A stretch of DNA of 64,000 nucleotides from Prunus persica (taxonomy: Eukaryota > Streptophyta > Magnoliopsida > Rosales > Rosaceae), in assembly GCF_000346465.2 (NCBI RefSeq), contig NC_034011.1, forward strand, positions 20,315,928 through 20,379,927. Reading direction: 5' to 3'. Position numbers and translations under genes: made by a program. The notes beneath the pieces are model-generated. The model did not search any database. It saw nothing but the letters and a program-made list of their open reading frames with translations, and was not told where the DNA came from. Of this stretch, positions 14,123 through 43,367 are shown in pieces (the first letter of the stretch is position 1; each line of letters begins with the position of its first letter).

Positions 14123-14286
14123 AGTCGCTTAGATTAGGATTTTCAACTCCTGTGGAGTCCACTATGCCACGTAGGATGCTGACTACGGTCAGCAATTGGT
14201 CACCGTGGGTGCTTTTACCATAATACCCCTTCCGCGTCAGCTTTTCTTTATGGTCTTTTGGATGGCATTAGTGGTTTGGGGGGAGG
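14123..14286 (-). repeat. Right MULE TIR, inner part
   Basis: Reverse complement of 8723 down to about 8570. It is cut at 14286 by the gypsy insertion; the outer part of the same TIR is 24543-24644. Confidence 0.88.
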
Positions 14287-15605
14287 TGTAACACCCCGAC
14301 TCCAAATTAAATGATTATTTTAATCAATTTTTATAAAATTACGAATTTACCCTTGGGATAGGGGTAAATTGGTCACTTTCTTCTTCGGAAGGATTTTGGG
14401 ACCACGAGTGGCATTTCTGAGAAGATGGTACTGAGACGAATTCATAGACACGCGGTAGGCTTGAATCGGGGTTGTAACGAAAAAGTTACGGGCAAAATAG
14501 TGTCAGTGGCAAACTTGTAAATATTTCAAAAAGTTTGGTAAAAATCAGATTTTCACCTCAGCTCTCTCTCTCTTCGTGCGCGACACTCTCTCTCTCCTCA
14601 ATCTCTCTCTCTCTCCCCGACGTTCACTCTCTCTCTCCTCGGCTTGCCCAGTTCCGGCCACAGCAGGACCCGAGATCGGTCCCGTTCGACTCGTCTCGTC
14701 GCCCCGGTCAAGCTCCGCCCGTTTTCCCCGTCGGAAACCAAGGATTCCGGCCGCGAGCTCGACGATTTTAAACCGAAGCCTTCCAGCCGTCGCGCCGCCG
14801 CCTCCGCCGCCCAAACCCGGTGATTGAGGTATGATTTCACTTCCATTTTCCGAGTTCTAGCTGATGTTGGTATAGGTTTTGATTGATTTCGAGTTTGGAA
14901 AACCGATTAGAAATCTAGGTTTTGGGCCGAATTTCAACATGAAATTCCGGCCAGTTGCCGGCCGAATTGGAGCTTCTCGTAGTTGAATGAAGTGATCCTG
15001 ACCTCGAGTAGAAGCTAGGGTAGGAAGGGTGAGCTCGGGTGTGGAGTTTTTCCGTCACCGGAATTACTCTGCACACCCACGCGCTGCCGGCGCGTGTGGC
15101 GGCGCGTGGGCGAGTCTGGCGAGGATGTAAATTGACCCGATGAGATCCTTAGGTTGTCACGAGCGCATAGGAATTCGCGGATCTCGATTCGGATGTCGTT
15201 TGGCTATCGAACGGATTTTCGCATATTATGCGTTATCCGAGTTCGATAGGTTCCGACTGTTAGATCTTTCCCAATTTAAAATATGTTGTTCTAGGTATTC
15301 CTAGGACCGTATGGGACTTCACGAATTCTGAATCGGAGCCCCGGATGTTCCGATGCAAAAATGCAAAGTTTGCGGGTTAGCAATAACCGTAAAATCGTGA
15401 ACGCTTCCTAAACCTGTAATCGGACCTTAGGATACCATCTTCGACGTGCACGTATGGGAATTTGGGGAGTTAAGCAATTAATTTGTGATTTCCGCTTGGA
15501 CGTGGTTTTTATATTAATTAACGGTTCGTATTTCGAAATAGGTATTTCGACTGCACGCTCGCAACAAGCAGGACCTTCACGTGGTCAGGCAGCGAGGGAA
15601 TATTT

Positions 15606-15615
15606 GTGAGTGGAC
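15606..15615 (+). other. Upstream half of the 10-nt complementary pair enclosing the hairpin array (5' LTR)
   Basis: GTGAGTGGAC, the exact reverse complement of 16547-16556. The same pair occurs in the divergent solo LTR (42206-42215 and 43358-43367). It contains GTGAGT, so a splice-donor role is the main alternative. Confidence 0.6.
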
Positions 15616-15918
15616 TTTGTTTTAACCATATGCCTGGTTTTAATTAATGAAAGATTTTGCATAATGTTTTAATGGATTCTGGATTTTTATATGTCTTATG
15701 CATGGATAAATTCTGATGGGTGTATAGCAATTGGCAATATATTGTGAAATTGGCATTTTTGGGTTTTGTGAGTGTATTTTATATGTGGATTGTGGGGAGG
15801 TATATTTTGATATATTCTTTTTAGATGAGATATTTGGGTTGTTGGAGGGTGTTATGGAAGAGTGTGTTTAGAGAGGAGTTGTGGGATTACACTACGTAAG
15901 TACCTTCCCCAGTTACTA

Positions 15919-16122
15919 GTCTCACTCGCGGCGTTGGATGTTCCGGCGGGTGAGACACTTTCCGTATGCGGCGTTGGATGTTCTGGCGTACGGAAAGATT
16001 GTGTATAGAGTTTAGGGTCATCACCATGGCGTTGGATGTTCCGGTGTGTGATGATCCAGTCTGCGCGCGTAGGACATAGTTTGAGAGCTACACATGGCGT
16101 TGGATGTTCCGGTGTGGGAGCT
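15919..16122 (+). other. Four-hairpin array with constant loop (5' LTR copy)
   Basis: Four stem-loops share the 16-nt loop GGCGTTGGATGTTCCG but have different stems. H1: 15919-15929 with 15946-15956, 11 pairs including one G-U. H2: 15958-15969 with 15986-15997, 12 pairs including one G-U. H3: 16015-16027 with 16044-16057, 13 pairs with one bulged base. H4: 16087-16095 with 16112-16122, nine pairs with a small internal loop. The loop of H2 has one T for C here and is consensus in the 3' LTR copy. No function is known to me; a structured LTR RNA is inferred. Confidence 0.8.
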
Positions 16123-16161
16123 TTGGAGTTTCGTCCCCCGGTTGGACCCCTCATCCCTAGA

Positions 16162-16221
16162 CGCAGGATAGCACCTGGAAATCCTGCGGACTAGTCAAAC
16201 GATCCCCCAGTTGGATTGTTT
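16162..16221 (+). other. Two further LTR hairpins
   Basis: CGCAGGAT (16162-16169) pairs perfectly with ATCCTGCG (16181-16188) around an 11-nt loop. AAACGATCC (16197-16205) pairs with GGATTGTTT (16213-16221) around CCCAGTT. They continue the hairpin array just upstream. Confidence 0.7.
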
Positions 16222-16546
16222 TCCCCGGTACCTAGGTGGTGTGACGAGTATACCGTATAGTTATTTATAGTTAATTATATATATATATATATTCTTTTTA
16301 TGTGTATTTATTGAATAGGTATAGTTGAGTGTGAAAGGAATTGGAGTGTGTTTAATAGTTGACAGGAGTGGTGAGTTTGAGAGAATGTGGTTCTTTTTTT
16401 TTGAAGGAGAAAACTGATGTTTTTAGATGAGTTTTACTGAAGCATGTTTTGAGTAATTTCTTATTGAATTGTGAACCTGCATGACTCGAGCATTATTTTT
16501 ACTTGGTGGGGTTATTATGTTGTTTTTAACTACAAACCTGGTTTTT

Positions 16547-16556
16547 GTCCACTCAC
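16547..16556 (+). other. Downstream half of the 10-nt complementary pair (5' LTR)
   Basis: GTCCACTCAC, complementary to 15606-15615. It is followed by a pyrimidine-rich stretch and CCCCCCAG, which resembles a splice acceptor. Confidence 0.6.
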
Positions 16557-17050
16557 ATGTTTTCTGTTTTGCGCCCCCCAGCCAGTAGTTGCGCCTGGAA
16601 GTGCAAGTGGTGTACGAAAGCGGATTCGGTGCACCCTTCTAATTAGGATCTGTGTAAATTCTTCTACTCAACTGTACTTGTAATCTAAATTCAGTAGATG
16701 CTCTGTATTGCCATGGTAGATTTTACTTGTGAGGCCGGAGGCCACTCTAGTATGAATTATGTATGTGTGAAAGCATGCTGCTGGTTGGGATTAGTATTAC
16801 TGTGTGTTGCAGGTTGAATAAATTTTGTTGGGATTGTTTAGATTGCAGGGGAGACTCTGCCAAATTTTTGTTAGAAAGTCTCAATTATTTAGTAGGTGGG
16901 CCCGGCATCGGGATGATGTCGGGATCAAGACGGGGTCCGCCTCGGTCTTGGGGAAATTCCAGGGCGGGTCTTGTCAGCTTGGTATCAGAGCATTAGGTTC
17001 ATTTTCCTTCGACTATTGCACTTTTGCTGCATTGTTGATCTAATGATTTC

Positions 17051-20000
17051 ATGATTTCTTTGTGTAGAATCATGTCAGCTCGCAGAGCTAGAACAAGAGG
17101 CCGTGGGCAGAGATGGGGGCCGAATCCTCCACCTCCATCTCCATCACCCCCTCCTTCACCACCACTACCTTCACCTTCACCTTCACCACCTCCACCTACT
17201 GGAGATAATGCTTTGGATTTGAGGCATGTGCTCAGTCAGTTTACTCATACAATGGCTACAGCCTTACGGGGAAGGCGTGGTACGGAAAGTTCGGAAATTA
17301 AGAGAGTTAAGGAACTTGGAGCTAAAGAATTCCTGGGTAGTACAGATCCGGCAGAAGCAGAATTATGGATTACCGACGTGGAGAGAATCTTTGATGTCCT
17401 GGAATGCCCAGCTGAGGATAGAGTCCGTTTGGCCACCTTTCTACTCAAGGGAAATGCGTATCATTGGTGGAAAGCAGTAAAAAGGGGTTATGAAAATCCG
17501 GCTGCTATAAATTGGGAAGAATTTCAACGAGTATTTTCAGATCAGTTTTACCCACCTTCTTATAAACAGGCAAAGAAGTCAGAGTTTCTCTATCTGAAAC
17601 AGGGGTCTATGTCAGTAGTGGAATATGAACACAAATTTAATGAGCTGTCCAGGTTTGCTCCCGAGTTGGTGGCTACAGAGGAAGACAGATGTAGACGCTT
17701 TGAGGAAGGTTTATGGTGGGAAATTCAGGCAGTTGTTACCGCTAGCACCTATCCAAATATGAGGGCTTTGGCTCAGGCAGCAGCAAGGGTGGCAAGGAAA
17801 CTTGGTGGGAATGTTGGTAGGCGCCATAGGGATGCACCAGGAATTGGTGGGCCCAGTCAGGGTCCATCAAAGAGGGGAGGATCTAGTTCCAGTTCGGCTA
17901 GTGGAGGATGGTCAGGAGGACGGGGATCTAGTTCTAGCAGTAGGAGATCTGGTTCTCGTTCGGCTTGGACTCAGTATTCGGGACCACAGTCTGTAGCTAG
18001 CACAGCCAGGGCTCCTTCTAGGTACACTGGGTTGACATGTTTTCATTGTGGGCAAGTTGGGCATATTGCGAAGGATTGTCCCAGTTACACTCAGGGAGGT
18101 GGATCAAGCCAGAGTAGTAGCCTGACATGCTACTTTTGTGGGCAAGTAGGACATACTAAGAGAAACTGCCCAATTATACTCCAGAATGATGCAATGAATC
18201 AGGGAACTGGGGCCCAGCTGGGGCAAGGTATCTTGGGTCAGAATCAGAATCAGGGTGGTGTTTCTTCCTCTGCAGCGGGGTCATCCAGTAGTAGGGCATC
18301 GTCATCTTCTAGAGGCAGAGGTGGTAGGCAATTAAGGGGTCAACCTGGGCGCTCCACTACTCAGGCCCGTGTGTTCTCCATGTCTCAGCAGGAAGCCTAT
18401 GCTACCCCGGACGTGATTACTGGTATGATTCCGATTTTTGGTTATCTTGCACGTGTTTTAATTGACCCGGGGGCCACACACTCTTTTGTAGCACACAATT
18501 TCATACCGTATGTCAGTATTAGACCCACACCTATGACAGGGAGCTTTAGTATTTCCCTACCTACGGGAGAAGTCTTATACGCAGATCGGATATTCAGAAA
18601 TTGTTTTGTCCAAGTAGATGATGCATGGTTGGAAGCAAATTTAATTCCTTTAGACTTGGTGGATTTGGATATTATTTTGGGGATGGATTGGCTGGAGAAA
18701 CATCATGCTTCAGTGGATTGTTATCGGAAGGAAGTAACGTTTCGAAGTCCAGGGCAACCTAGAGTTACCTTCCGTGGGGAGCGTAGAGTTCTCCCTACTT
18801 GTCTAATCTCTGCTATTACAGCCAAGAAGTTACTCCAGAAGGGATGTGAGGGGTATTTGGCGCACATCATTGATACTCGAGAGATCACCCTAAATCTGGA
18901 AGATATTCCTGTTGTTTGTGATTTTCCTGATGTCTTTCCAGATGATCTCCCTGGTTTACCCCCTGAAAGGGAAATCGAGTTCACTATTGAACTTCTTCCG
19001 GGCACCAACCCTATTTATCTAACCCCCTATAGGATGGCACCAGCTGAACTTCGGGAGTTGAAGATTCAATTACAGGAGTTAGTAGATCTTGGGTTCATCA
19101 GACCCAGTGTTTCACCGTGGGGTGCACCTGTATTGTTTGTGAGGAAGAAAGATGGAACCATGAGGTTATGTATTGATTACCGGCAGCTGAATAAGGTGAC
19201 GATACGTAACCGGTACCCTTTGCCTCGGATTGATGATCTGTTTGATCAGTTGAAGGGTGCTAAGTATTTTTCTAAGATCGATTTGAGATCAGGATACCAC
19301 CAGTTGAGGATCAGGGAAGAGGATATTCCTAAGACCGCATTCAGAACACGGTATGGACATTATGAATTTCTGGTGATGCCGTTTGGGCTGACAAATGCTC
19401 CAGCAGCGTTTATGGATCTCATGAACAGAGTGTTCCGACCCTACTTGGATCACTTTGTGATTGTATTCATCGACGATATCTTGGTGTACTCCCAGACTTT
19501 GGAAGGGCATAAGAAGCATCTGAGGTTGGTATTGAGAACCTTGAGAAGGAAGCAGCTTTATGCTAAATTTAGTAAGTGTCAGTTCTGGCTGGACAGAGTG
19601 GTATTTCTGGGACATGTAATTTCAGCTGAAGGGATTTATGTGGATCCACAGAAAGTTGAAGCTATTGTGAACTGGGTACAACCCACCAGTGTGACAGAAA
19701 TACGGAGTTTTCTAGGATTGGCAGGCTACTATCGTCGATTTGTGGAAGGGTTTTCTTCGATAGCAGCACCTCTCACACGGTTGACAAAGAAAGATGTTGC
19801 ATATGAGTGGACGGAAGAATGTGAACAAAGTTTTAAAGAATTAAAGAAGCGATTAACCACTGCACCTGTTTTGGCTCTTCCAGATAATGCAGGAAATTTT
19901 GTGATCTACAGTGATGCATCTTTGCGAGGCTTGGGATGTGTTCTGATGCAACATGATCGGGTGATTGCTTATGCCTCGAGGCAACTCAAGAAGCATGAGC

Positions 20001-21802
20001 AAAATTATCCAGTTCATGATCTGGAACTTGCCGCTGTAGTGTTCGCTCTTAAGATTTGGCGGCATTATTTGTATGGTGAGACGTGTCAGATTTTCACTGA
20101 TCATAAAAGTCTCAAGTACTTTTTCACTCAAAAGGAGCTTAATATGAGACAACGACGTTGGTTGGAATTGATAAAGGATTATGACTGCACAATTGAGTAT
20201 CATCCAGGCCGAGCTAATGTGGTAGCAGATGCACTGAGTAGGAAGACTACGGGAAGTTTGGCTCATCTCAGAACGGCATATCTTCCGTTGTTAGTGGAAC
20301 TACGGAAAGATGGTGTGGGACTGGAAATGGCGCAACAGGGAGGATTACTTGCTAGTTTGCATGTGAGACCCATTTTGGTGGAGCGGATAATTGAAGCCCA
20401 GTTGGGAGACCCAACACTTTGTAGAATAAGGGGAGAAGTAGAAAGTGGTTCGCGGAAAGATTATGCAATAAGGGGAGATGGGGCGTTGGTAACAGGAACT
20501 CGCCTCTGTGTACCTAAGAATGATTATCTGAAAAGAGAAATCCTGGAGGAAGCTCACTGTTCCACTTACACTATGCATCCAGGAAGCACCAAGATGTATC
20601 GAACCCTACGGGAGTATTACTCATGGCCGCATATGAAGGGAGATATTGCCAAGTATGTGAGTAGATGCTTGATTTGTCAACAAGTGAAAGCGGAGCGACA
20701 GAAACCTTCCGGACTTATGCAACCGCTTCCAATTCCTGAATGGAAGTGGGAGCACATTACCATGGATTTCGTTTTCAAGCTTCCACGTACTCCCAATGGA
20801 CATGATGGAATTTGGGTGATAGTGGATAGACTCACCAAGTCCGCCCATTTCCTACCTGTTAAGGAAACTTATTCTCTGACAAAATTGGCAAAACTTTTTG
20901 TGGACGAGATTGTGAGGTTACATGGAGCACCTGTGTCCATTGTATCGGACAGGGATGCCCGATTTACTTCTCGATTCTGGAAGTGTTTGCAGGAAGCTAT
21001 GGGTACTAGGTTGCGGTTTAGCACAGCTTTTCACCCCCAGACTGATGGACAATCAGAAAGAACTATTCAGACTTTGGAGGATATGTTGAGGTCGTGTGTA
21101 CTGCAGATGAAAGATTCATGGGATACTCACCTTGCCTTGGTGGAATTTGCATACAATAACAGTTATCATGCGAGTATAAAGATGGCTCCTTATGAGGCGT
21201 TGTATGGGAGACAGTGTAGGACTCCTATGTGTTGGAACGAAGTGGGAGATAAGAAATTAGAAAAAGTGGAAAGTATCCGAGCAACAACCGAAAAAGTGAA
21301 GATCATTAAAGAAAAGCTGAAGATCGCACAAGACCGACAGAAGAGTTATGCAGATAATAGGTCCAAAGATCTCGAATTTGCAGTTGGGGATTGGGTGTTC
21401 CTGAAGTTATCTCCTTGGAAGGGTGTGATGAGATTCGGAAAACGTGGGAAATTAAGCCCTCGTTATATTGGACCCTATGAGATTACTGAACGCATCGGAC
21501 CGGTTGCTTATAGACTTGCATTACCTGCAGAACTATCTCGGGTGCATGATGTGTTCCATGTATCTATGTTTCGGAAGTATATGCCAGACCCTTCTCACGT
21601 TTTAGAATATCCACCTGTGGAGTTGGAAGAAGATTTGTCATTTGAGGAGCAACCTGTGCAAATTCTAGATAGGAAAGAACAACAGTTGCGCTCTAGATCC
21701 ATTCCAGTAGTGAAGGTTCTGTGGAGAAGCCAAACTGTGGAAGAAGCTACATGGGAGCCTGAGACACAAATGAGGGTCAAGTACCCTCATCTTTTCCATT
21801 GA
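17051..21802 (+). CDS. Gypsy-1 gag-pol polyprotein (1583 aa)
   Basis: Single open frame; the start may be ATG 17051 or the in-frame ATG at 17072 ([12 protein letters not shown]). A proline/serine-rich N-terminus (about 25-50) is encoded by a CCWTCA-type repeat. Next come Gag ([14 protein letters not shown] ... NAYHWWKAV) near 100-145, two CCHC knuckles [14 protein letters not shown] and [14 protein letters not shown] near 335 and 365, and the protease [10 protein letters not shown], where the usual DSG Ser is Pro. Reverse transcriptase has FIDDILVYS, RNase H has [10 protein letters not shown], and integrase has the H2C2 finger (HPGSTK ... CLICQQ) and DDE core ([23 protein letters not shown]). 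A chromo-like tail reads [16 protein letters not shown]. No stops are present. The DPG variant should be compared with active relatives before calling the element competent. Confidence 0.95.
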
Positions 21803-21849
21803 CAGGTACGTGAATTTCGGGGACGAAATTTTCTTTAAGGAGGGTAGAT

Positions 21850-24537
21850 TGTAACACCCCGACTCCAAATTAAATGATTATTTTAATCGATTTTTATAAA
21901 ATTACGAATTTACCCTTGGGATAGGGGTAAATTGGTCACTTTCTTCTTCGGAAGGATTTTGGGACCACGAGTGGCATTTCTGAGAAGATGGTACTGAGAC
22001 GAATTCATAGACACGCGGTAGGTTTGAATCGGGGTTGTAACGAAAAAGTTACGGGCAAAATAGTGTCAGTGGCAAACTTGTAAATATTTCAAAAAGTTTG
22101 GTAAAAATCAGATTTTCACCTCAGCTCTCTCTCTCTTCGCGCGCGACACTCTCTCTCTCCTCAGTCTCTCTCTCTCTCCCCGACGTTCACTCTCTCTCTC
22201 CTCGGCTTGCCCAGTTCCGGCCACGGCAGGACCCGAGATCGGTCCCGTTCGACTCGTCTCGTCGCCCCGGTCAAGCTCCGCCCGTTTTCCCCGTCGGAAA
22301 CCAAGGATTCCGGCCGCGAGCTCGACGATTTTAAACCGAAGCCTTTCAGCCGTCGCGCCGCCGCCTCCGCCGCCCAAACCCGGTGATTGAGGTATGATTT
22401 CTCTTCCATTTTCCGAGTTCTAGCTGATGTTGGTATAGGTTTTGATTGATTTCGAGTTTGGAAAACCGATTAGAAATCTAGGTTTTGGGCCGAATTTCAA
22501 CATGAAATTCCGGCCAGTTGCCGGCCGAATTGGAGCTTCTCGTAGTTGAATGAAGTGATCCTGACCTCAAGTAGAAGCTAGGGTAGGAAGGGTGAGCTCG
22601 GGTGTGGAGTTTTTCCGTCACCGGAATTACTCTGCACACCCACGCGCTGCCAGCGCGTGTGGCGGCACGTGGGCGAGTCTGGCGAGGATGTAAATTGACC
22701 CGATGAGATCCTTAGGTTGTCACGAGCGCATAGGAATTCGCGGATCTCGATTCGGATGTCGTTTGGCTATCGAACGGATTTTCGCATATTATGCGTTATC
22801 CGAGTTCGATAGGTTCCGACCGTTAGATCTTTCCCAATTTAAAATATGTTGTTCTAGGTATTCCTAGGACCGTATGGGACTTCACGAATTCTGAATCGGA
22901 GCCCCGGATGTTCCGATGCAAAAATGCAAAGTTTGCGGGTTAGCAATAACCGTAAAATCGTGAACGCTTCCTAAACCTGTAATCGGACCTTAGGATACCA
23001 TCTTCGACGTGCACGTATGGGAATTTGGGGAGTTAAGCAATTAATTTGTGATTTCCGCTTGGACGTGGTTTTTATATTAATTAACGGTTCGTATTTCGAA
23101 ATAGGTATTTCGACTGCACGCTCGCAACAAGCAGGACCTTCACGTGGTCAGGCAGCGAGGGAATATTTGTGAGTGGACTTTGTTTTAACCATATGCCTGG
23201 TTTTAATTAATGAAAGATTTTGCATAATGTTTTAATGGATTCTGGATTTTTATATATCTTATGCATGGATAAATTCTGATGGGTGTATAGCAATTGGCAA
23301 TATATTGTGAAATTGGCATTTTTGGGTTTTGTGAGTGTATTTTATATGTGGATTGTGGGGAGGTATATTTTGATATATTCTTTTTAGATGAGATATTTGG
23401 GTTGTTAGAGGGTGTTATGGAAGAGTGTGTTTAGAGAGGAGTTGTGGGATTACACTACGTAAGTACCTTCCCCAGTTACTAGTCTCACTCGCGGCGTTGG
23501 ATGTTCCGGCGGGTGAGACACTTTCCGTATGCGGCGTTGGATGTTCCGGCGTACGGAAAGATTGTGTATAGAGTTTAGGGTCATCACCATGGCGTTGGAT
23601 GTTCCGGTGTGTGATGATCCAGTCTGCGCGCGTAGGACATAGTTTGAGAGCTACACATGGCGTTGGATGTTCCGGTGTGGGAGCTTTGGAGTTTCGTCCC
23701 CCGGTTGGACCCCTCATCCCTAGACGCAGGATAGCACCTGGAAATCCTGCGGACTAGTCAAACGATCCCCCAGTTGGATTGTTTTCCCCGGTACCTAGGT
23801 GGTGTGACGAGTATACCGTATAGTTATTTACAGTTAATTATATATATATATATTCTTTTTATGTGTATTTATTGAATAGGTATAGTTGAGTGTGAAAGGA
23901 ATTGGAGTGTGTTTAATAGTTGACAGGAGTGGTGAGTTTGAGAGAATGTGGTTCTTTTTTTTTGAAGGAGAAAACTGATGTTTTTAGATGAGTTTTACTG
24001 AAGCATGTTTTGAGTAATTTCTTATTGAATTGTGAACCTGCATGACTCGAGCATTATTTTTACTTGGTGGGGTTATTATGTTGTTTTTAACTGCAAACCT
24101 GGTTTTTGTCCACTCACATGTTTTCTGTTTTGCGCCCCCCAGCCAGTAGTTGCGCCTGAAAGTGCAAGTGGTGTACGAAAGCGGATTCGGTGCACCCTTC
24201 TAATTAGGATCTGTGTAAATTCTTCTACTCAACTGTACTTGTAATCTAAATTCAGTAGATGCTCTGTATTGCCATGGTAGATTTTACTTGTGAGGCCGGA
24301 GGCCACTCTAGTATGAATTATGTATGTGTGAAAGCATGCTGCTGGTTGGGATTAGTATTAATGTGTGTTGCAGGTTGAATAAATTTTGTTGGGATTGTTT
24401 AAATTGCAGGGGAGACTCTGCCAAATTTTTGTTAGAAAGTCTCAATTATTTAGTAGGTGGGCCCGGCATCGGGATGATGTCGGGATCAAGACGGGGTCCG
24501 CCTCGGTCTTGGGGAAATTCCGGGGCGGGTCTTGTCA
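21850..24537 (+). repeat. Gypsy-1 3' LTR
   Basis: 2,688-bp LTR, nearly identical to 14287-16976 (about 20 substitutions by eye, one TA dinucleotide fewer). The hairpin array is repeated at 23482-23685. Confidence 0.95.
23482..23685 (+). other. Four-hairpin array with constant loop (3' LTR copy)
   Basis: Same four stem-loops as 15919-16122, at an offset of 7,563 bp. All four loops read the consensus GGCGTTGGATGTTCCG here. Confidence 0.8.
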
Positions 24538-24542
24538 GGAGG

Positions 24543-24644
24543 GGGGGAGTGGAACACAAAACCACGGTCAAGGGGGTTAAGTGGGCCATTTTAACTTTGG
24601 GAGGGTTAAGTCATATTTGACCGAAGTTTTAGAGAGTGCTATAG
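24543..24644 (-). repeat. Right MULE TIR, outer part
   Basis: Reverse complement of about 8569 down to the left end of the element. The TIR resumes here after the gypsy 3' LTR and the second GGAGG. Confidence 0.88.
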
Positions 24645-24691
24645 TATAATTAATTAATAAACAAAGGCAGGCCAGTACGAGAAAAACTTAC

Positions 24692-24745
24692 TTCATTGAG
24701 AAGATCAACACAAGCTTTAAGTGATCTGCCTCCACTATTGCAACC
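24692..24745 (-). pseudogene. Rhodanese (STR) exon 5 fragment
   Basis: 54 nt on the minus strand encoding GCNSGGRSLKACVDLLNE with the catalytic Cys loop intact and GT/AG splice edges. It corresponds to exon 5 (47323-47376) of the intact gene. Homology ends near 24820, before exon 4 would appear, so the 5' part of this copy is gone. It pairs with the decayed last exon at 8274-8387. Confidence 0.88.
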
Positions 24746-36001: not shown

Positions 36002-39000
36002 TTGGGGCTCTGTGATTTAAATTAAATAAAAGAAGTAGGTCAAAAAAGAAAAGTAAAGAAACTAAATTTTTTGCAAATGGGATTAAATTTTCTTTTTTAA
36101 AAGTACAGCCGCACGGCTATCCTATTTATATATTTAAAAAAAAGGATGCCCCAGCGCATAGGTGCCGCGTGTCACAGCCTACTTAAAAAAAATTGGGGAA
36201 AATAAGTATAGCCGTCCGGCTATACTATTTCTAGAAGAAAATTCAAAAAAGAATCCAGTGTAGCCGAGCGGCTATACTCTTTTTAAAGTACAGCCGTACG
36301 GCTGTCCTATTTATATATTAAAAAAAGGGATGCCCCAGCGCATAGGTGCCGCGTGTCACAGCCAACTAAAAAAACTTTGGGGGAAATAAGTATAGCCGTG
36401 CGGCTATACTATTTCTAGAAGAAAATTCAAACAGAATCCGGTGTAGCCGGGCGGCTATACTCTGTTTACACCGGCCAAGGCCTATGCGCCACGTGGCAAA
36501 CGGTTACAGCAGGGCGGCTGTACTATTTTTAATTAAAATTTTTGAAAAGGAGTATAGCCGCGCGGCGATACTATTTTTAATAAACAATTACGGAAAAACT
36601 GAGATTTTTTTTAAATATATATTATTTTTATTCAATAATATGTTAGAATTATGTGTATAATACGTGAATTTTGCGTCTTACTGAAATTTTTGTTAAAATT
36701 AAGTGCACTAAACATGAGAAATACGTGTATAAAACATTATTAAACGTGAAAGTGCAAAAATATTTATGCGGGTAATAGCTTTGGAAAAGAAAAAAATCAA
36801 AAAGGGACACTAGATACTCGAGCAATGGCATAATAATGACAGATAGGGCTCTTGGGCTATGGAGAAATTTAACTAAGACACCCAAATGAGTTCACAAAAG
36901 ACTTAATAAATATAAATGAATTATTTTGGGGACTTTTACTTGAATTTCTTATATATATATATATATATATATTAAAATAAAAGTAGTGATTAAAGTAATT
37001 CAAAAAAGCTAAGATATTGCTCAATTACATAAATTAAATAAAAGAAGTAGGTCAAAAAAGAAAAGTAAAGAAACTAAATTTTTTGCAAATGGGATTAAAT
37101 TTTCTTTTATAAAAGTACCGCCGCACGGCTATACTATTTATATATTTAAAAAAAAGGATGCCCCAGCACATAGGTGCCGCGTGTCACAGCCTACTTAAAA
37201 AAAATTGGGGAGAATAAGTATAGCCGGTCGGCTATACTATTTCTAGAAGAAATTCAAACAGAATCCAGTGTAGCCGGGCGGCTATACTCTTTTTAAAGGG
37301 CCAAGGACTATGCGCCACGTGGCAAGTTGAATATTCTTTTTTTTAAAGTACAGCCGTACGGCTGTACTATTTATATATTTAAAAAAGGGATGCCCCATCG
37401 CATAGGTGCCGCGTGTCACAGCCAACTAAAAAAAATTTGGGGAAAATAAGTATAGCCGTGCGGCTATACTATTTCTAGAAGAAAATTCAAACAGAATCCG
37501 GTGTAGCCGGGCGGCTATACTCTGTTTACACCGGCCAAGGCCTATGCGCCACGTGGCAAATGGTTACAGCAGGGCGGCTGTACTATTTTTAATTAAAATT
37601 TTTGAAAAGGAGTATAGCCGCGCGGCTATACTATTTTTAATAAACAATTACGGAAAAACTGAGATTTTTTTTAAATATATATTATTTTTATTCAATAATA
37701 TGTTAGAATTATGTGTATAATACGTGAATTTTGCGTCTTACTGAAATTTTTGTTAAAATTAAGTGCACTAAACATGAGAAATACGTGTATAAAACATTAT
37801 TAAACGTGAAAGTGCAAAAATATTTATTCGGGTAATAGCTTTGGAAAAGAAAAAAATCAAAAAGGGACACTAGATACTCGAGCAATGGCTTAATAATGAC
37901 AGATAGGGCTCTTGGGCTATGGAGAAATTTAACTAAGACACCCAAATAAGTTCACAAACGACTTAATAAATATAAATGAATTATTTTGGGGACTTTTACT
38001 TGAATTTCTTATATATATATATATATATATTAAAATAAAAGTAGTGATTAAAGTAATTCAAAAAAGCTAAGATATTGTTCAATTACATAAATTAAATAAA
38101 AGAAGTAGGTCAAAAAAGAAAAGTAAAGAAACTAAATTTTTTGCAAATGGGATTAAATTTTCTTTTTTAAAGGTACAGCCGCACGGCTATACTATTTATA
38201 TATTTAAAAAAAGGGATGGCCCAGCGCACAGGTGCCGCGTGTCACAGCCTACTAAAAAAAAATTGGGGAGAATACGTATAGCCGGTCGGCTATACTATTT
38301 CTAGAAGAAAATTCGAAAAAGAATCCAGTATAGCCGACCGGCTATACTCTTTTTAAAGGGCCAAGGACTATGCGCCACGTGGCAAATTGAATATTCTTTT
38401 TTTTCAAGTACAGCCGCACGGCTGTACTATTTATATATTTAAAAAAGGGATGCCCCAGCGCAAAGGTGCCGCGTGTCACAGCCAACTTAAAAAAATTTGG
38501 GGAAAATAAGTATAGCCGTGCGGCTATACTATTTCTAGAAGAAAATTCAAACAGAATCCAGTGTAGCCGGGCGGCTATACGCTGTTTACACCGGCCAAGG
38601 CCTATGCGCCACGTGGCAAACGGTTACAGCAGGGCGGCTGTACTATTTTTAATTAAAATTTTTGAAAAGGAGTATAGCCGCGCGGCTATACTATTTTTAA
38701 TAAACAATTACGGAAAAACTGAGATTTTTTTTAAATATATATTATTTTTATTCAATAATATGTTAGAATTATGTGTATAATACATGAATTTTGCGTCTTA
38801 CTGAAATTTTTGTTAAAATTAAGTGCACTAAACATGAGAAATACGTGTATAAAACATTATTAAACGTGAAAGTGCAAAAATATTTATGCGGGAAATAGCT
38901 TTGGAAAAGAAAAAAATCAAAAAGGGACACTAGATACTCGAGCAATGGCTTAATAATGACAGATAGGGCTCTTGGGCTATGGAGAAATTTAACTAAGACA

Positions 39001-41788
39001 CCCAAACGAGTTCACAAAAGACTTAATAAATATAAATGAATTATTTTGGGGACTTTTACTTGAATTTCTTATATATATATATATATATATTAAAATACAA
39101 GTAGTGATTAAAGTAATTCAAAAAAGCTAAGATATTGCTCAAATACATAAATTAAATAAAAGAAATAGGTCAAAAAAGAAAAGTAAAGAAACTAAATTTT
39201 TTGCAAATGGGATTAAATTTTCTTTTTTAAAGGTACAGCCGCACGGCTATACTATTTATATATTTAAAAAAAAGGATGCCCCATCGCATAGGTGCCGCGT
39301 GTCACAGCCTACTTAAAAAAAATTGGGGAGAATAAGTATAGCCGATCGGCTATACTATTTCTAGAAGAAAAGTCGAAAAAGAATCCAGTATAGCCGCGCG
39401 GCTATACTCTTTTTAAGGGCCAAGGACTATGCGCCACGTGGCAAGTTGAATATTCTTTTTTTTTAAAGTACACCCGCACGGCTGTACTATTTATATATTA
39501 AAAAAAGGGATGCCCCAGCGCATAGGTGCCGCGTGTCACAGCCAACTAAAAAAAATTTGGGGGAAATAAGTATAGCCGTGCGGCTATACTATTTCTAGAA
39601 GAAAATTCAAACAGAATCCGGTGTAGCCGGGCGGCTAGACTCTGTTTACACCGGCCAAGGCCTATGCGCCACGTGGCAAACGGTTACAGCAGGGCGGCTG
39701 TACTATTTTTAATTAAAATTTTTGAAAAGGAGTATAGCCGCGCGGCTATACTATTTTTAATAAACAATTACGGAAAAACTGAGATTTTTTTTAAATATAT
39801 ATTATTTTTATTCAATAATATGTTAGAATTATGTGTATAATACGTGAATTTTGCGTCTTACTGAAATTTTTGTTAAAATTAAGTGCACTAAACATGAGAA
39901 ATACGTGTATAAAACATTATTAAACGTGAAAGTGCAAAAATATTTATGCGGGTAATAGCTTTGGAAAAGAAAAAAATCAAAAAGGGACACTAGATACTCG
40001 AGCAATGGCTTAATAATGACAGATAGGGCTCTTGGGCTATGGAGAAATTTAACTAAGACACCCAAACGAGTTCACAAAAGACTTAATAAATATAAATGAA
40101 TTATTTTGGGGACTTTTACTTGAATTTCTTATATATATATTAAAATACAAGTAGTGATTAAAGTAATTCAAAAAAGCTAAGATATTGCTCAATTACATAA
40201 ATTAAATAAAAGAAGTAGGTCAAAAAAGAAAAGTAAAGAAACTAAATTTTTTGCAAATGGGATTAAATTTTCTTTTTTAACGGTACAGCCGCACGGCTAT
40301 ACTATTTATATATTTTAAAAAAAGGATGGCCCAGCGCACATGTGCCGCGTGTCACAGCCTACTTAAAAAAAAATTGGGGAGAATCAGTATAGCCGGTCGG
40401 CTATACTATTTCTAGAAGAAAATTCAAAAAAGAATCCAGTATAGCCGACCGGCTATACTCTTTTTAAAGGGAGAAGGACTATGCGCCACGTGGCAAGTTG
40501 AATATTCTTTTTTTTAAAGTACAGCCGACCGGCTGTACTATTTATATATTAAAAAAAGGGATGCCCCAGCGCATAGGTGCCGCGTGTCACAGCCAACTAA
40601 AAAAAATTTGGGGGAAATAAGTATAGCCGTGCGGCTATACTATTTCTAGAAGAAAATTCAAACAGAATCCGGTGTAGCCGGGCGGCTATACTTTTTTTAC
40701 ACCGGCCAAGGCCTATGCGCCACGTGGCAAACGGTTACAGCAGGGCGGCTATACTATTTTTAATTAAAAATTAAAAAAAAGAGCATATCCGCGCGGTGTA
40801 AAAAGAGTATAGCCGGCTATACTATTTATATATTAAAAAAAAGGATGCCCCAGCGCATAGGTGCCGCGTGTAACGGCCTACTTTAAAAAAAATTTGGGAA
40901 AGTAAGTATAGCCATAGCCGCATGGCTATACTATTTCTAGAAGAAAATTCAAAAAGAACCCAGTATAGCCGGGCGGCTATACGCTTTTTACACCGGCTAA
41001 GGCCTATGCGCCACGTGGCAAATGGTTACAGCACGGCGGCTGTACTATTTTTAATTAAAAATTTAAAAAAAGAGTATAGCCGCTCGGCTATACTATTATT
41101 AATAAACAATTATGGAAAAACTGAGATTTTTTTTAAATATATATTATTTTTATTCAATAATATGTTAGAATTATGTGTATAATACGTGAATTTTGCATTC
41201 TTACTGAAATTTTTGTTAAAATTAAGTGCACTGAACATGAGAAATACGTGTATAAGACATTATGAAATATGAAAGTGCAAAAATTTTTATGCGTGTAATA
41301 GCTTTGGAAAAGTAAAAAATAAAAAAGGGACAATAGATACTCGAGTAATGGCCTAATAATAACGAATAGGCTCTTGGTTTGGAGAAATTTAATAAGACAC
41401 CCAAACGAGTTCACAAAAGACTTAATAAATTTAAATTAATTATTTTGGGGACTTTTACTTTAATTTGTTTTTATATATTAAAATACAATTAGTAATTAAA
41501 GTAATTCAAAAAGGCTAAGATATTGCTCAATTACATATATTAAATAAAAGAAGTAGGCCAAAAAAGAAAAGTAAAGAAATTAAATTTTTTATAAATGGGA
41601 TTAAATTTTCTTTTTTAGAAGTACAGCTGCACCACTATACTATTTATATATTTAAAAAAAAGGATGCCCCAGCGCATAGGTGCCGCGTGTCACAGCCTAC
41701 TTAAAAAAAATTTGGGGAAAATAATCCAGTATAGCCAGGCGGCTATACTCTTTTTACACCTGCCAGAGCCTATGCGCCACGTGTCAAA
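36002..41788. repeat. Palindrome-rich ~1,060-bp tandem repeat array
   Basis: Units begin near 36019, 37031, 38090, 39150, 40200 and 41540, most about 1,050-1,060 bp long and nearly identical over the first four; the fifth is rearranged. Each full unit holds about eight palindromes of the form AGTA(T/C)AGCCGNNCGGCT(A/G)TACT. A typical spacer is ATGCCCCAGCGCATAGGTGC, another ends GCGCCACGTGGC. About 450 bp of AT-rich sequence and a (TA)n tract complete the unit. Internally a half-unit of three palindromes is duplicated, so it is a higher-order repeat. The last unit is split by the solo LTR and continues at 44848-45290. No protein gene is supported. Confidence 0.93.
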
Positions 41789-42205: not shown

Positions 42206-42215
42206 GTGAGTGGAC
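42206..42215 (-). other. One half of the 10-nt complementary pair in the solo LTR
   Basis: GTGAGTGGAC on the plus strand, the exact reverse complement of 43358-43367. The identical pair is found in the Gypsy-1 LTR. Confidence 0.6.
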
Positions 42216-42517
42216 AAAAATAAAGGTTCATAAAATATCTTAAGAATATACTAACCCCCATTGTAAAATATAGTAGAGTAAGACTGAATATCTAAACTAC
42301 CTTTGAAGCATATTAAAACCAACGCAGTTACATATTTATATAAATATATGCAATCGTATTCAAGAGCAATAAAACTTGCATGAAAGCACTGAAATCCAAA
42401 CTTGCATAAAAACACTGTAATCAAATTTGCATAAAAGCAATGTACTCAAACCTTGCATAAAAGCACTGCAATCAATTAAAATTACCACTAGGATGTACCC
42501 CTGTAATTTCGTCAATT

Positions 42518-42815
42518 CCCCTGGCAAGTCTCGACGACACAAAGTCTATCCGAGCTGCAAACTGGCAGGATTCAGGGGACTATAGTCAGCCTGATCCGCT
42601 GGCAGGCCTCGGTGAGACAAAGTCAACTCGAGCCGCAACTGGCAGGATTCAGGGGACCGTAGTCAGCCTGATCCGCAATCCTGGCAGGTCTCGGTGACAC
42701 CAAGTCACTCCGAGCCGCAAATCCTGGCAGGTCTCGGGACACCAAGTCAATCCGAGCCGCAAATCCTGGCAGGTTTCGGTGACACCAAGTCAATCCGAGC
42801 CGCAAATCCTGGCAC
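42518..42815 (-). repeat. ~43-bp minisatellite of hairpin units in the solo LTR
   Basis: Five units of the type CTGGCAGG-TCTCGGTGACACCAAG, followed by GTCAATCCGAGCCGCAAATC, with two interspersed ATTCAGGGGAC variants. Each unit can fold: for example CTCGG (42690-42694) with CCGAG (42710-42714), and TGAC (42695-42698) with GTCA (42704-42707). It lies between 42206-42215 and 43358-43367, the same relative place as the Gypsy-1 hairpin array. Confidence 0.8.
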
Positions 42816-43357
42816 CCACGGTCCGGGCGATCCCGAAACTCGTGAGGCAAATGTCAAGTGCACTGACAAAACTGAGGGTAAACTGGATGTCGGTAGACAT
42901 CGGCATAACTGAGGGTAATAACCATAGATGGGTACTCACGGTGGTTTAAAATATATAACATTTATGGAAAATCTGCTGAAGAACTGAATTGTTATTAAAT
43001 CAAGAACTCTGAGAAAATATAATATATAAATATTATAATATTTCTGAAAGATCTAATGAATAACTGAATGTTTATTAAGTCAAGAACTCTGCTATCATAA
43101 GAACATAGAAAGCTCCTGAAAAATCTGATAAATAGCTGACTTTTGTTAAATCGGAAACTATGCTGCTATTTTATCTGATGTAAATCTCAAACTCTGCTTT
43201 TTGTAACTCTTTAGCATATCGACTAAGCAGCATATAAATAAGATATGTAACTTCACAAAGCATACTAGGAAAAATCACAATTAATAAAACTTGTTCAAGA
43301 TCAAATAATAAAACTCATTATATAAACTCATTTATATAAAATCATTTATGAAAGAAA

Positions 43358-43367
43358 GTCCACTCAC
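43358..43367 (-). other. Other half of the 10-nt complementary pair in the solo LTR
   Basis: GTCCACTCAC on the plus strand, complementary to 42206-42215. Confidence 0.6.

What the first reader, a model, noticed from the sequence alone, without database searches (positions are those of the whole stretch)
15919..16122. Four consecutive hairpins with one conserved loop and four different stems in a gypsy LTR
Each hairpin presents the same 16-nt loop GGCGTTGGATGTTCCG, while the stems (11, 12, 13 and 9 pairs) have unrelated sequences. Loop conserved and stem changed but still paired is the pattern expected of a repeated RNA motif recognised through its loop. A plain minisatellite would keep the stems the same. 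The 10-mer GGATGTTCCG also occurs once upstream at 15343-15352. I know of no described family with this layout.
Basis: seen in the sequence. Interest (0 to 1): 0.82.

Follow-up and report, generated by a model that had tools for sequence, protein, structure and literature searches.

The report
Repeated-loop RNA hairpins in Prunus retrotransposon LTR
A mobile element in a Prunus genome carries a row of small hairpins that share one loop on different stems, inside a larger structure with counterparts in many related elements; it may be the tag by which such an element recognises its own RNA.

Summary
The window holds a young Ty3/gypsy element (14287-24537) of a Prunus genome; both LTRs carry the four hairpins. 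H1 and H2 are strong, H3 needs bulges, H4 is weak. Stems are not wholly unrelated: the pairs beside the loop follow one pattern, the outer pairs differ. Own arms pair best (1 of 24 arrangements in the window, 1 of 120 in L029; 0 of 20000 for 11 hairpins).

The feature is larger than reported. Related LTRs carry 3-5 hairpins or arrays of up to 14 with this loop. In the window family a long-range helix P1 closes the array. Other LTR families keep similar closing strands around other hairpins. Splice-like sites suggest a leader intron kept only in genomic RNA. The element's sense strand avoids complements of the loop.

Best guess: a multivalent recognition or packaging signal for the element's own Gag. 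Covariation within orthologous stems is thin and absent for P1 across families; no RNA data were available. No Rfam match; no description found in the searches made.

The parts
14287..16976 (+). 5' LTR (TGTAACACC...CTTGTCA), 2690 bp
   Evidence: 99.18% identical to the 3' LTR; direct repeat GGAGG at 14282-14286 and 24538-24542
21850..24537 (+). 3' LTR with the same hairpin array
17072..21802 (+). intact gag-pol reading frame (1576 aa from this ATG; 1583 aa from an in-frame ATG at 17051)
   Evidence: Pfam gag, CCHC, protease, RT, RNase H, integrase; chromodomain below its cut-off
16980..16991 (+). primer binding site TGGTATCAGAGC (initiator Met tRNA type, recalled)
   Evidence: sequence
14829..14830 (+). 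putative 5' splice site GAG|GTATGA after a pyrimidine-rich leader
   Evidence: a like sequence in 41 of 69 rows (some places appear twice; L033 lacks the GT); AG|GTATGG in families B, L156, L158, L159. No transcript evidence
15606..15615 (+). P0 5' strand GTGAGTGGAC
   Evidence: in 21 of 32 LTR loci with at most 1 mismatch (16 exact), reversed control 0 of 32
16547..16556 (+). P0 3' strand GTCCACTCAC, exact complement of 15606-15615
   Evidence: with GCGCCCC downstream 532 times in the genome, reversed control 0
15887..15904 (+). P1 5' strand UUACACUACGUAAGUACC, closing helix of the array domain
   Evidence: duplex energy -20.8, 0 of 500 shuffles as low
16227..16244 (+). P1 3' strand GGUACCUAGGUGGUGUGA
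15919..15956 (+). hairpin H1, loop 15930-15945, 11 bp
   Evidence: fold; z -3.0; not formed in the 52-copy alifold
15958..15997 (+). hairpin H2, loop 15970-15985, 12 bp
   Evidence: z -4.6; pair G-C/A-T covaries
16015..16057 (+). hairpin H3, loop 16028-16043, stem with bulges
   Evidence: z -2.4; ungapped 14-bp stem in L029
16086..16122 (+). hairpin H4, loop 16096-16111, weak interrupted stem
   Evidence: z -0.6
16132..16224 (+). three further small hairpins in the same domain; weak when cut out (-3.0 to -6.1), no null made
   Evidence: fold
15327..15361 (+). separate upstream hairpin that holds the extra 10-mer GGATGTTCCG
   Evidence: fold; context TGAATCGG counted 37 times
16569..16581 (+). 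TTGCGCCCCCCAG, acceptor-like block inside the LTR
17060..17067 (+). putative 3' splice site TTGTGTAG just before the gag ATG
   Evidence: analogous TTCTTGTGACAG and TTCTTTCAG before gag in L153 and L154, not clear in L155
23482..23685 (+). the same four hairpins in the 3' LTR
42517..42820 (-). hairpin array of a distant LTR family (B): seven hairpins with another loop, in a similar P0/P1 frame (P1 strands 42930-42946 and 42484-42500; P0 strands 43358-43367 and 42206-42215)

Best explanation
The four hairpins are related copies of one RNA module: an outer stem, a 5-nt bulge (GGCGU), a short inner stem (GGA/UCC) and a UGU triloop. They sit inside a ~360-nt domain of the transcribed LTR of a plant Ty3/gypsy (chromovirus-like) retrotransposon, closed by helix P1. 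Shown: the sequences, own-arm pairing, recurrence in many copies, and similar closing strands in other families. Inferred: the domain lies in a leader intron (donor 14828|14829, acceptor 16581 or 17067), so that only unspliced genomic RNA carries it together with the primer binding site. Inferred: the repeated loops act as multivalent docking sites for the element's own Gag, marking genomic RNA for packaging (and perhaps dimerisation), as a retroviral psi does. The loop is family specific, and copy number drifts by duplication (2, 3-5, 7, up to 14 seen).
For: The same 16-mer loop in the window family and in family T although the LTRs are 60-67% identical. Own arms pair best: 11 hairpins, mean -15.5 against -7.8 kcal/mol when swapped, 0 of 20000 permutations; the best of 24 and of 120 arrangements in two single copies; 158 arm types, 7.55 against 6.42 of 10 pairs, 0 of 2000. 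Paired changes between subfamilies at H2 (G-C/A-T; T-A/T-G/C-G) and H1 (A-T/T-T/T-G). P1 duplex 0 of 500 shuffles, present in the 53 window-family rows in which its 5' strand was found. Domain alifold energy -225 against -197 (sd 5) for 20 column shuffles. The sense strand of the element has 5 six-mers complementary to the loop against 19.8 (sd 5.0) in 200 dinucleotide shuffles, none as low, and 0.4% of 3412 sampled 16-mers of the element are as depleted, as if the loop must stay free in sense RNA. Family B has a similar frame with a different, itself repeated loop, which speaks for an element-encoded rather than a host reader. Donor-like site in diverged families; acceptor-like site before gag in 3 of the 4 elements in which the PBS-gag leader could be read.
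Against: No transcript, structure-probing or binding data. Only 5 of 60 stem pairs vary enough on both sides; four of these rank between 9% and 26% of column pairs. The 52-copy alifold does not form H1 as a hairpin, although the single-sequence fold does. One T-family hairpin (T2 of L016) pairs poorly, -5.5. P1 shows no covariation across 26 loci (259 of 286 cells paired, shuffles 258), and alone is not significant in family B (trimmed strand, 59 of 500) or in three T copies (85-122 of 500). Private mutations in stems show no G-U bias (37 G-U, 29 A-C), as expected of dead copies but no help. H4 is weak. The ATG-poor leader is explained by its composition (4 ATG against 4.5 expected). No intron-less copies for three predicted junctions. 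The complement-avoidance test was made after the fact, on one element.
Confidence: 0.4

Rival explanations
1. A nuclear export or stability element: the repeated loops bind a host export factor so that intron-containing genomic RNA leaves the nucleus, as the identical loops of the Mason-Pfizer CTE do (loop identity recalled).
For: Similar layout (repeated loops on a structured RNA, intron-containing RNA). PMC10309623 (passages) states the export problem for LTR elements and mentions the NXF1-binding secondary structure of Mason-Pfizer virus.
Against: A host reader should see one loop in all families; families A/T and B have different loops.
Confidence: 0.15
2. A splicing switch: P0 pairs a GTGAGT donor-like site with a CTCAC branch-point-like site, and the array is a spacer that keeps part of the RNA unspliced.
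For: P0 strands are exact complements and the 5' strand recurs in 21 of 32 LTR loci, control 0; acceptor-like CCCCCCAG follows at once; leader donor-like site.
Against: Does not explain one loop repeated on different stems; P0 hardly varies, so pairing is unproven; no spliced copies found.
Confidence: 0.15
3. A DNA-level element: dyad-symmetric boxes bound by a transcription factor or prone to cruciform formation, like repeated enhancer boxes in some plant LTRs (recalled).
For: The minus strand folds too; P1 across families shows similar numbers of G-U and A-C cells (14 and 11).
Against: Majority wobble pairs in the window family's hairpins are T-G or G-T, none A-C; loop complements are avoided on the sense strand, which a DNA function does not predict; + strand of the domain folds lower than - (-139.7 against -113.3). 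Lowered from 0.14 to 0.11 because.
Confidence: 0.11
4. No function: tandem duplication plus template switching at hairpins during reverse transcription keeps arms complementary and copies the loop.
For: Family T arrays are regular tandem repeats; copy number varies; template switching repairs imperfect palindromes (recalled).
Against: Switching should give perfect Watson-Crick arms, yet T-G closing pairs are the majority in H0, H3 and H4; it does not explain a 16-nt loop unchanged between LTRs that differ by a third elsewhere or complement avoidance.
Confidence: 0.14

Closest known systems
Retroviral packaging signal psi / dimer initiation stem-loops (recalled)
   Same: Several stem-loops in the 5' leader of an LTR element, probably downstream of a splice donor and upstream of gag
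   Different: Here the loops are near-identical copies on different stems, far upstream of the PBS and inside the LTR, so probably present at both RNA ends; Gag binding untested
Ty1 kissing-loop dimerisation/packaging domain (PMC5454406, passages)
   Same: LTR-retrotransposon leader structure with loops proposed to act in packaging
   Different: Ty1 uses two complementary loops and a pseudoknot; here one repeated loop, self-pairing energy -10.2 (no null made)
Mason-Pfizer CTE / Rev- and Rex-response elements (recalled; Mason-Pfizer and HIV export mentioned in PMC10309623 passages)
   Same: Structured RNA that marks intron-containing retroelement RNA
   Different: Different layout; loops here are family specific
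BARE separate RNA pools by splicing (PMC3735527, passages)
   Same: Plant LTR element whose translated and packaged RNAs differ
   Different: BARE splices within gag and uses two start sites; a leader intron is only predicted here
LTR minisatellites / repeated enhancer boxes (recalled)
   Same: Repeated short units in an LTR; family T is a regular array
   Different: In the window the units have different stems and irregular spacing

Membership tests
Ty3/gypsy LTR retrotransposon | paired LTRs TG...CA, target duplication, PBS, purine tract | tested here: met
   99.18% identical LTRs, GGAGG repeat, TGGTATCAGAGC, AAGGAGGGTAGA just before the 3' LTR
Ty3/gypsy LTR retrotransposon | gag-PR-RT-RNase H-integrase order | tested here: met
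Chromovirus (Tekay/Del-like, name recalled) | chromodomain at the end of integrase | tested here: inconclusive
   PF00385 E 0.00083, score 19.7 below its cut-off 25.1
Retroviral-type packaging signal | multiple stem-loops in the leader | tested here: met
   (predicted folds; H4 weak; H1 not in the alifold)
Retroviral-type packaging signal | located only in unspliced RNA, downstream of the major donor | tested here: inconclusive
   donor- and acceptor-like sites, no transcripts available, no spliced copies
Retroviral-type packaging signal | bound by Gag and required for encapsidation | not testable with these tools
   needs binding or packaging assay
CTE-type export element | binds host export receptor, drives export of unspliced RNA | not testable with these tools
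   none
Any Rfam 15 family | covariance-model match | tested here: not met
   (window 14200-24700): only two sub-threshold P10 matches (E 0.37, 0.72) outside the array; (seven loci): none
Plain minisatellite | whole unit repeated, stems included | tested here: not met
   different outer stems and spacings in the window; met in family T
Covarying RNA structure (R-scape-like, own script) | covariation above phylogenetic background in orthologous pairs | tested here: inconclusive
   5 of 60 pairs testable, one in the top 0.3%; none for P1

The most novel reading that the evidence does not exclude
Plant chromovirus-like retrotransposons carry a conserved LTR leader domain (P0/P1 frame plus hairpins) that works as a packaging code: each family has its own loop, repeated a variable number of times, read by its own Gag and present only in unspliced genomic RNA. 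Loop identity would decide which non-autonomous or sister elements can be packaged in trans.
Probability: 0.25. Interest if true: 0.82.

Novelty: new variant of a known kind. Interest (0 to 1): 0.58.

Why it matters
Plant genomes are full of Ty3/gypsy elements, yet how they separate translated from packaged RNA and how Gag finds its genome seems little studied; a 2025 review of host factors in plant LTR retrotransposition (PMC12786077, term search of its main text) holds none of the terms packaging signal, stem-loop, hairpin, secondary structure or dimeriz-. A repeated-loop domain with a frame shared by many families would give a concrete RNA target for probing and binding assays, and a possible explanation of who can parasitise whom among these elements.

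Tried and rejected
Bacterial contigs with the 11-mer GTTGGATGTTC twice (41 stretches) and three viral contigs: read; simple repeats or unrelated sequence, no array of this kind seen; rejected as relatives. Exact two-loop and acceptor-block patterns in viral contigs: 0.

ATG depletion as proof of a leader exon: dropped. The contrast of 0.4 against 3.7 ATG (35 of the 41 located rows, those with at least 280 nt upstream) is explained by base composition.

G-U against A-C bias in private stem mutations as proof of RNA selection: none seen. Spliced (intron-less) genomic copies: none; the two hits keep the acceptor block. Covariation of P1 across families: not found (26 of 32 loci kept, the six dropped are listed there).

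Selection bias to note: L009-L047 were found by an exact 14-mer of the loop and L048-L077 by similarity to the array, so loop conservation within the family is inflated. L122-L151 were chosen by hand, as examples of different spacers, from the places that one search listed (contig C1 only) out of 532. The alpha and beta patterns were taken from sequences seen before. One genome only; whether other plants carry the domain was not tested. A search of papers for four sequence strings listed only two papers, on human and sheep SNPs (listing).

Full report
WHAT THE WINDOW HOLDS. The window lies in a 227.5-Mb genome of 192 contigs. Of 51 Gag homologues found, 31, among them the strongest named ones, bear a Prunus name; the size fits peach (recalled). 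The finding lies in the 5' LTR of an intact Ty3/gypsy element: LTRs 14287-16976 and 21850-24537, 99.18% identical with 20 mismatches and one gap, GGAGG repeat on both sides, PBS TGGTATCAGAGC, one open frame of 1583 aa with gag, CCHC, protease, RT, RNase H, integrase and a sub-threshold chromodomain.

THE OBSERVATION. One loop of the 5' LTR has a base change. H1 and H2 are strong hairpins, H3 needs bulges, H4 is weak (fold z -3.0, -4.6, -2.4, -0.6). The usual best fold is an outer stem, a 5-nt bulge GGCGU, an inner stem GGA/UCC (plus U-G) and a UGU triloop; other registers lie within about 1 kcal/mol, and are best in some hairpins. The inner parts of the arms follow one pattern with paired changes, the outer parts differ.

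MORE THAN CHANCE. In the window the own-arm arrangement is the best of 24 possible (-17.2, next -13.5); in L029 (five hairpins) the best of 120 (-16.6, next -15.2). For 11 hairpins from three copies none of 20000 permutations reaches it. For 158 distinct arm pairs the own partner gives 7.55 of 10 pairs against 6.42 when swapped, 0 of 2000 permutations (this set includes hits of the upstream hairpin, which do not pair in this register). Exact loop 14-mers: 546 in the genome against 1 for the reversed pattern.

COPIES AND SUBFAMILIES. Of 39 loci fetched from contig C1, 30 carry 3-5 hairpins of the window kind (a sixth match in L029 is the upstream hairpin), eight carry arrays of another kind (family T: L015, L016, L021, L026, L033, L040, L041, L047; 3 to 14 matches, often at 39+53, 39+59 or about 92 nt), and L030 has one. 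Five-hairpin copies have an additional H0 and a better H3 (L029 -23.7, window -18.4) but no better H4. Between subfamilies paired changes occur: H2 pair 6 G-C (32), A-T (18), G-T (1); H2 pair 9 T-A (42), T-G (6), C-G (3); H1 pair 4 T-G (34), A-T (12), T-T (4) (52 distinct copies). Against this, only 5 of 60 stem pairs have both columns variable (at least 3 copies with another base), and their ranks among column pairs are 0.0022, 0.094, 0.105, 0.122 and 0.258. An alifold of the 52 domains is lower than 20 column shuffles (-225 against -197, sd 5), but does not form H1 as a hairpin. Mutations seen in few copies show no G-U preference in stems (37 G-U, 29 A-C, 21 others), which is what neutral decay gives.

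THE CLOSING HELIX. Folding 15881-16260 showed a long-range helix P1, UUACACUACGUAAGUACC with GGUACCUAGGUGGUGUGA, 16 of 18 positions paired, about 330 nt apart. It appears in 53 window-family rows (energies -14.9 to -20.9; 293-387 nt between strands); in L030 and L045 the 5' strand was not found. Its energy is reached by 0 of 500 shuffles for the window and 1 of 500 for L029, but by 59 of 500 in family B (trimmed strand) and 85-122 of 500 in three T-family copies.

A SHARED FRAME. A block GTCCACTCAC-N-GCGCCCC lies 300 nt downstream of P1 and occurs 532 times in the genome, reversed control 0. I fetched 30 examples with different spacers. With the window family and family B (minus strand of this window) that makes 32 loci. 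The 5' partner GTGAGTGGAC is found in 21 of 32 (16 exact), reversed control 0 of 32; eight of the eleven without it were fetched with only about 800 nt. P1-like strands are found in 26 of 32, but their pairing does not exceed arm-swapped controls (259 of 286 cells, control mean 258): they are conserved sequences, and pairing across families is plausible, not proven. In 21 of 32 loci both an alpha hairpin like GGAUCAGG...CCUGAAUCC and a beta hairpin like GGCUCGG...CCGAGACC match at up to 4 mismatches. In family B of the window these two are amplified to seven. Gag of two such families is only 34-38% identical to that of the window element, so the frame is old. LTRs of A, B and T are about 60-67% identical over their longer alignable stretches.

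LOOP COMPLEMENTS ARE AVOIDED. Of 3412 sampled 16-mers of the element 0.4%, some of them the loop copies themselves, have as few complements. On the other strand the same 6-mers are not rare, array copies included. This fits a loop that must stay single-stranded in sense RNA, and is the only strand-specific evidence of this kind; it is one late test on one element.

WHERE IT SITS IN THE RNA. The LTR has a pyrimidine-rich stretch of about 270 nt ending in GAG|GTATGA at 14828|14829. A donor-like sequence is located in 41 of the 69 rows scanned (at most 6 mismatches to the window's 23-mer; some places appear twice; L033 lacks the GT) and, as AG|GTATGG, in families B, L156, L158 and L159; in L157 it reads AG|ATATGG. 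L156, L159 and B have a TATAAAA upstream of the stretch; the window copy does not have it at that place. Just before gag lies TTTGTGTAG in the window, TTCTTGTGACAG in L153 and TTCTTTCAG in L154; L155 lacks a clear one and in L152 no PBS was found. A leader intron containing both array and PBS is therefore likely but unproven; three junction searches found no intron-less copies, and the scarcity of ATG in the leader is explained by composition.

MECHANISM. Repeated identical loops on different stems suggest a multivalent binding site. The loop is shared by A and T and replaced in B, while the frame stays; a reader encoded by the element fits this better than a host protein. Position in an RNA segment that splicing would remove from mRNA fits a mark of genomic RNA. 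I therefore favour Gag recognition for packaging, at 0.40, over export, splicing control, DNA-level function or no function.

LITERATURE. Searches for hairpins, stem-loops, packaging signals and leader introns in LTR elements and for sequence strings returned no description of this array in the listings I saw; the library lacks most subscription papers. [quoted passage not shown] PMC3735527 (passages) reports separate RNA pools in BARE. PMC5454406 (passages) describes Ty1 kissing loops. PMC10309623 (passages) describes export of unspliced Cer1 RNA. Rfam 15 has no match at gathering level in what was searched.

LIMITS. One genome only; no transcripts; examples chosen from one chromosome; loci chosen through the loop or the block itself. 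The claim of a repeated-loop, paired-arm array is well founded for the window family, moderately for the wider frame, and the function is inference.

Noticed in passing
window 42517-42820 (-): A second, distant LTR (family B, about 44840-41800 minus) has its own array of seven hairpins with two alternating outer stems and a related UGACU-type loop.
   Followed up: yes
window 15606-15615 and 16547-16556; 23169-23178 and 24108-24117: Exact complementary 10-mers GTGAGTGGAC / GTCCACTCAC bracket the array and recur in many LTR loci; they look like a donor site paired to a branch-point region.
   Followed up: partly
window 14560-14828; L156, L158, L159: Pyrimidine-rich leader followed by an AG|GTATGG site in diverged LTR families: a likely leader intron of plant gypsy elements.
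   Followed up: partly
window 14287-24537: The sense strand of the element is strongly short of 6-mers complementary to the array loop (5 against about 20).
   Followed up: partly
L015, L016, L021, L033, L047: Family T carries the same loops as tandem arrays of up to 14 hairpins.
   Followed up: partly
window 15327-15361; L029 about 866; L124: A separate LTR hairpin AAUCGGA...UCCGAUU shares the 10-mer GGATGTTCCG with the array loops; the loop may have been recruited from it.
   Followed up: no
window 36095-41163: Tandem repeats of 184-291 bp containing TACAGCCGCACGGCTAT-like palindromes, repeated several times; not examined.
   Followed up: no
L078-L118 (public bacterial contigs): Simple repeats such as GTTGGATGTTCGAT in several Verrucomicrobia and other MAGs; unrelated to the finding.
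   Followed up: partly
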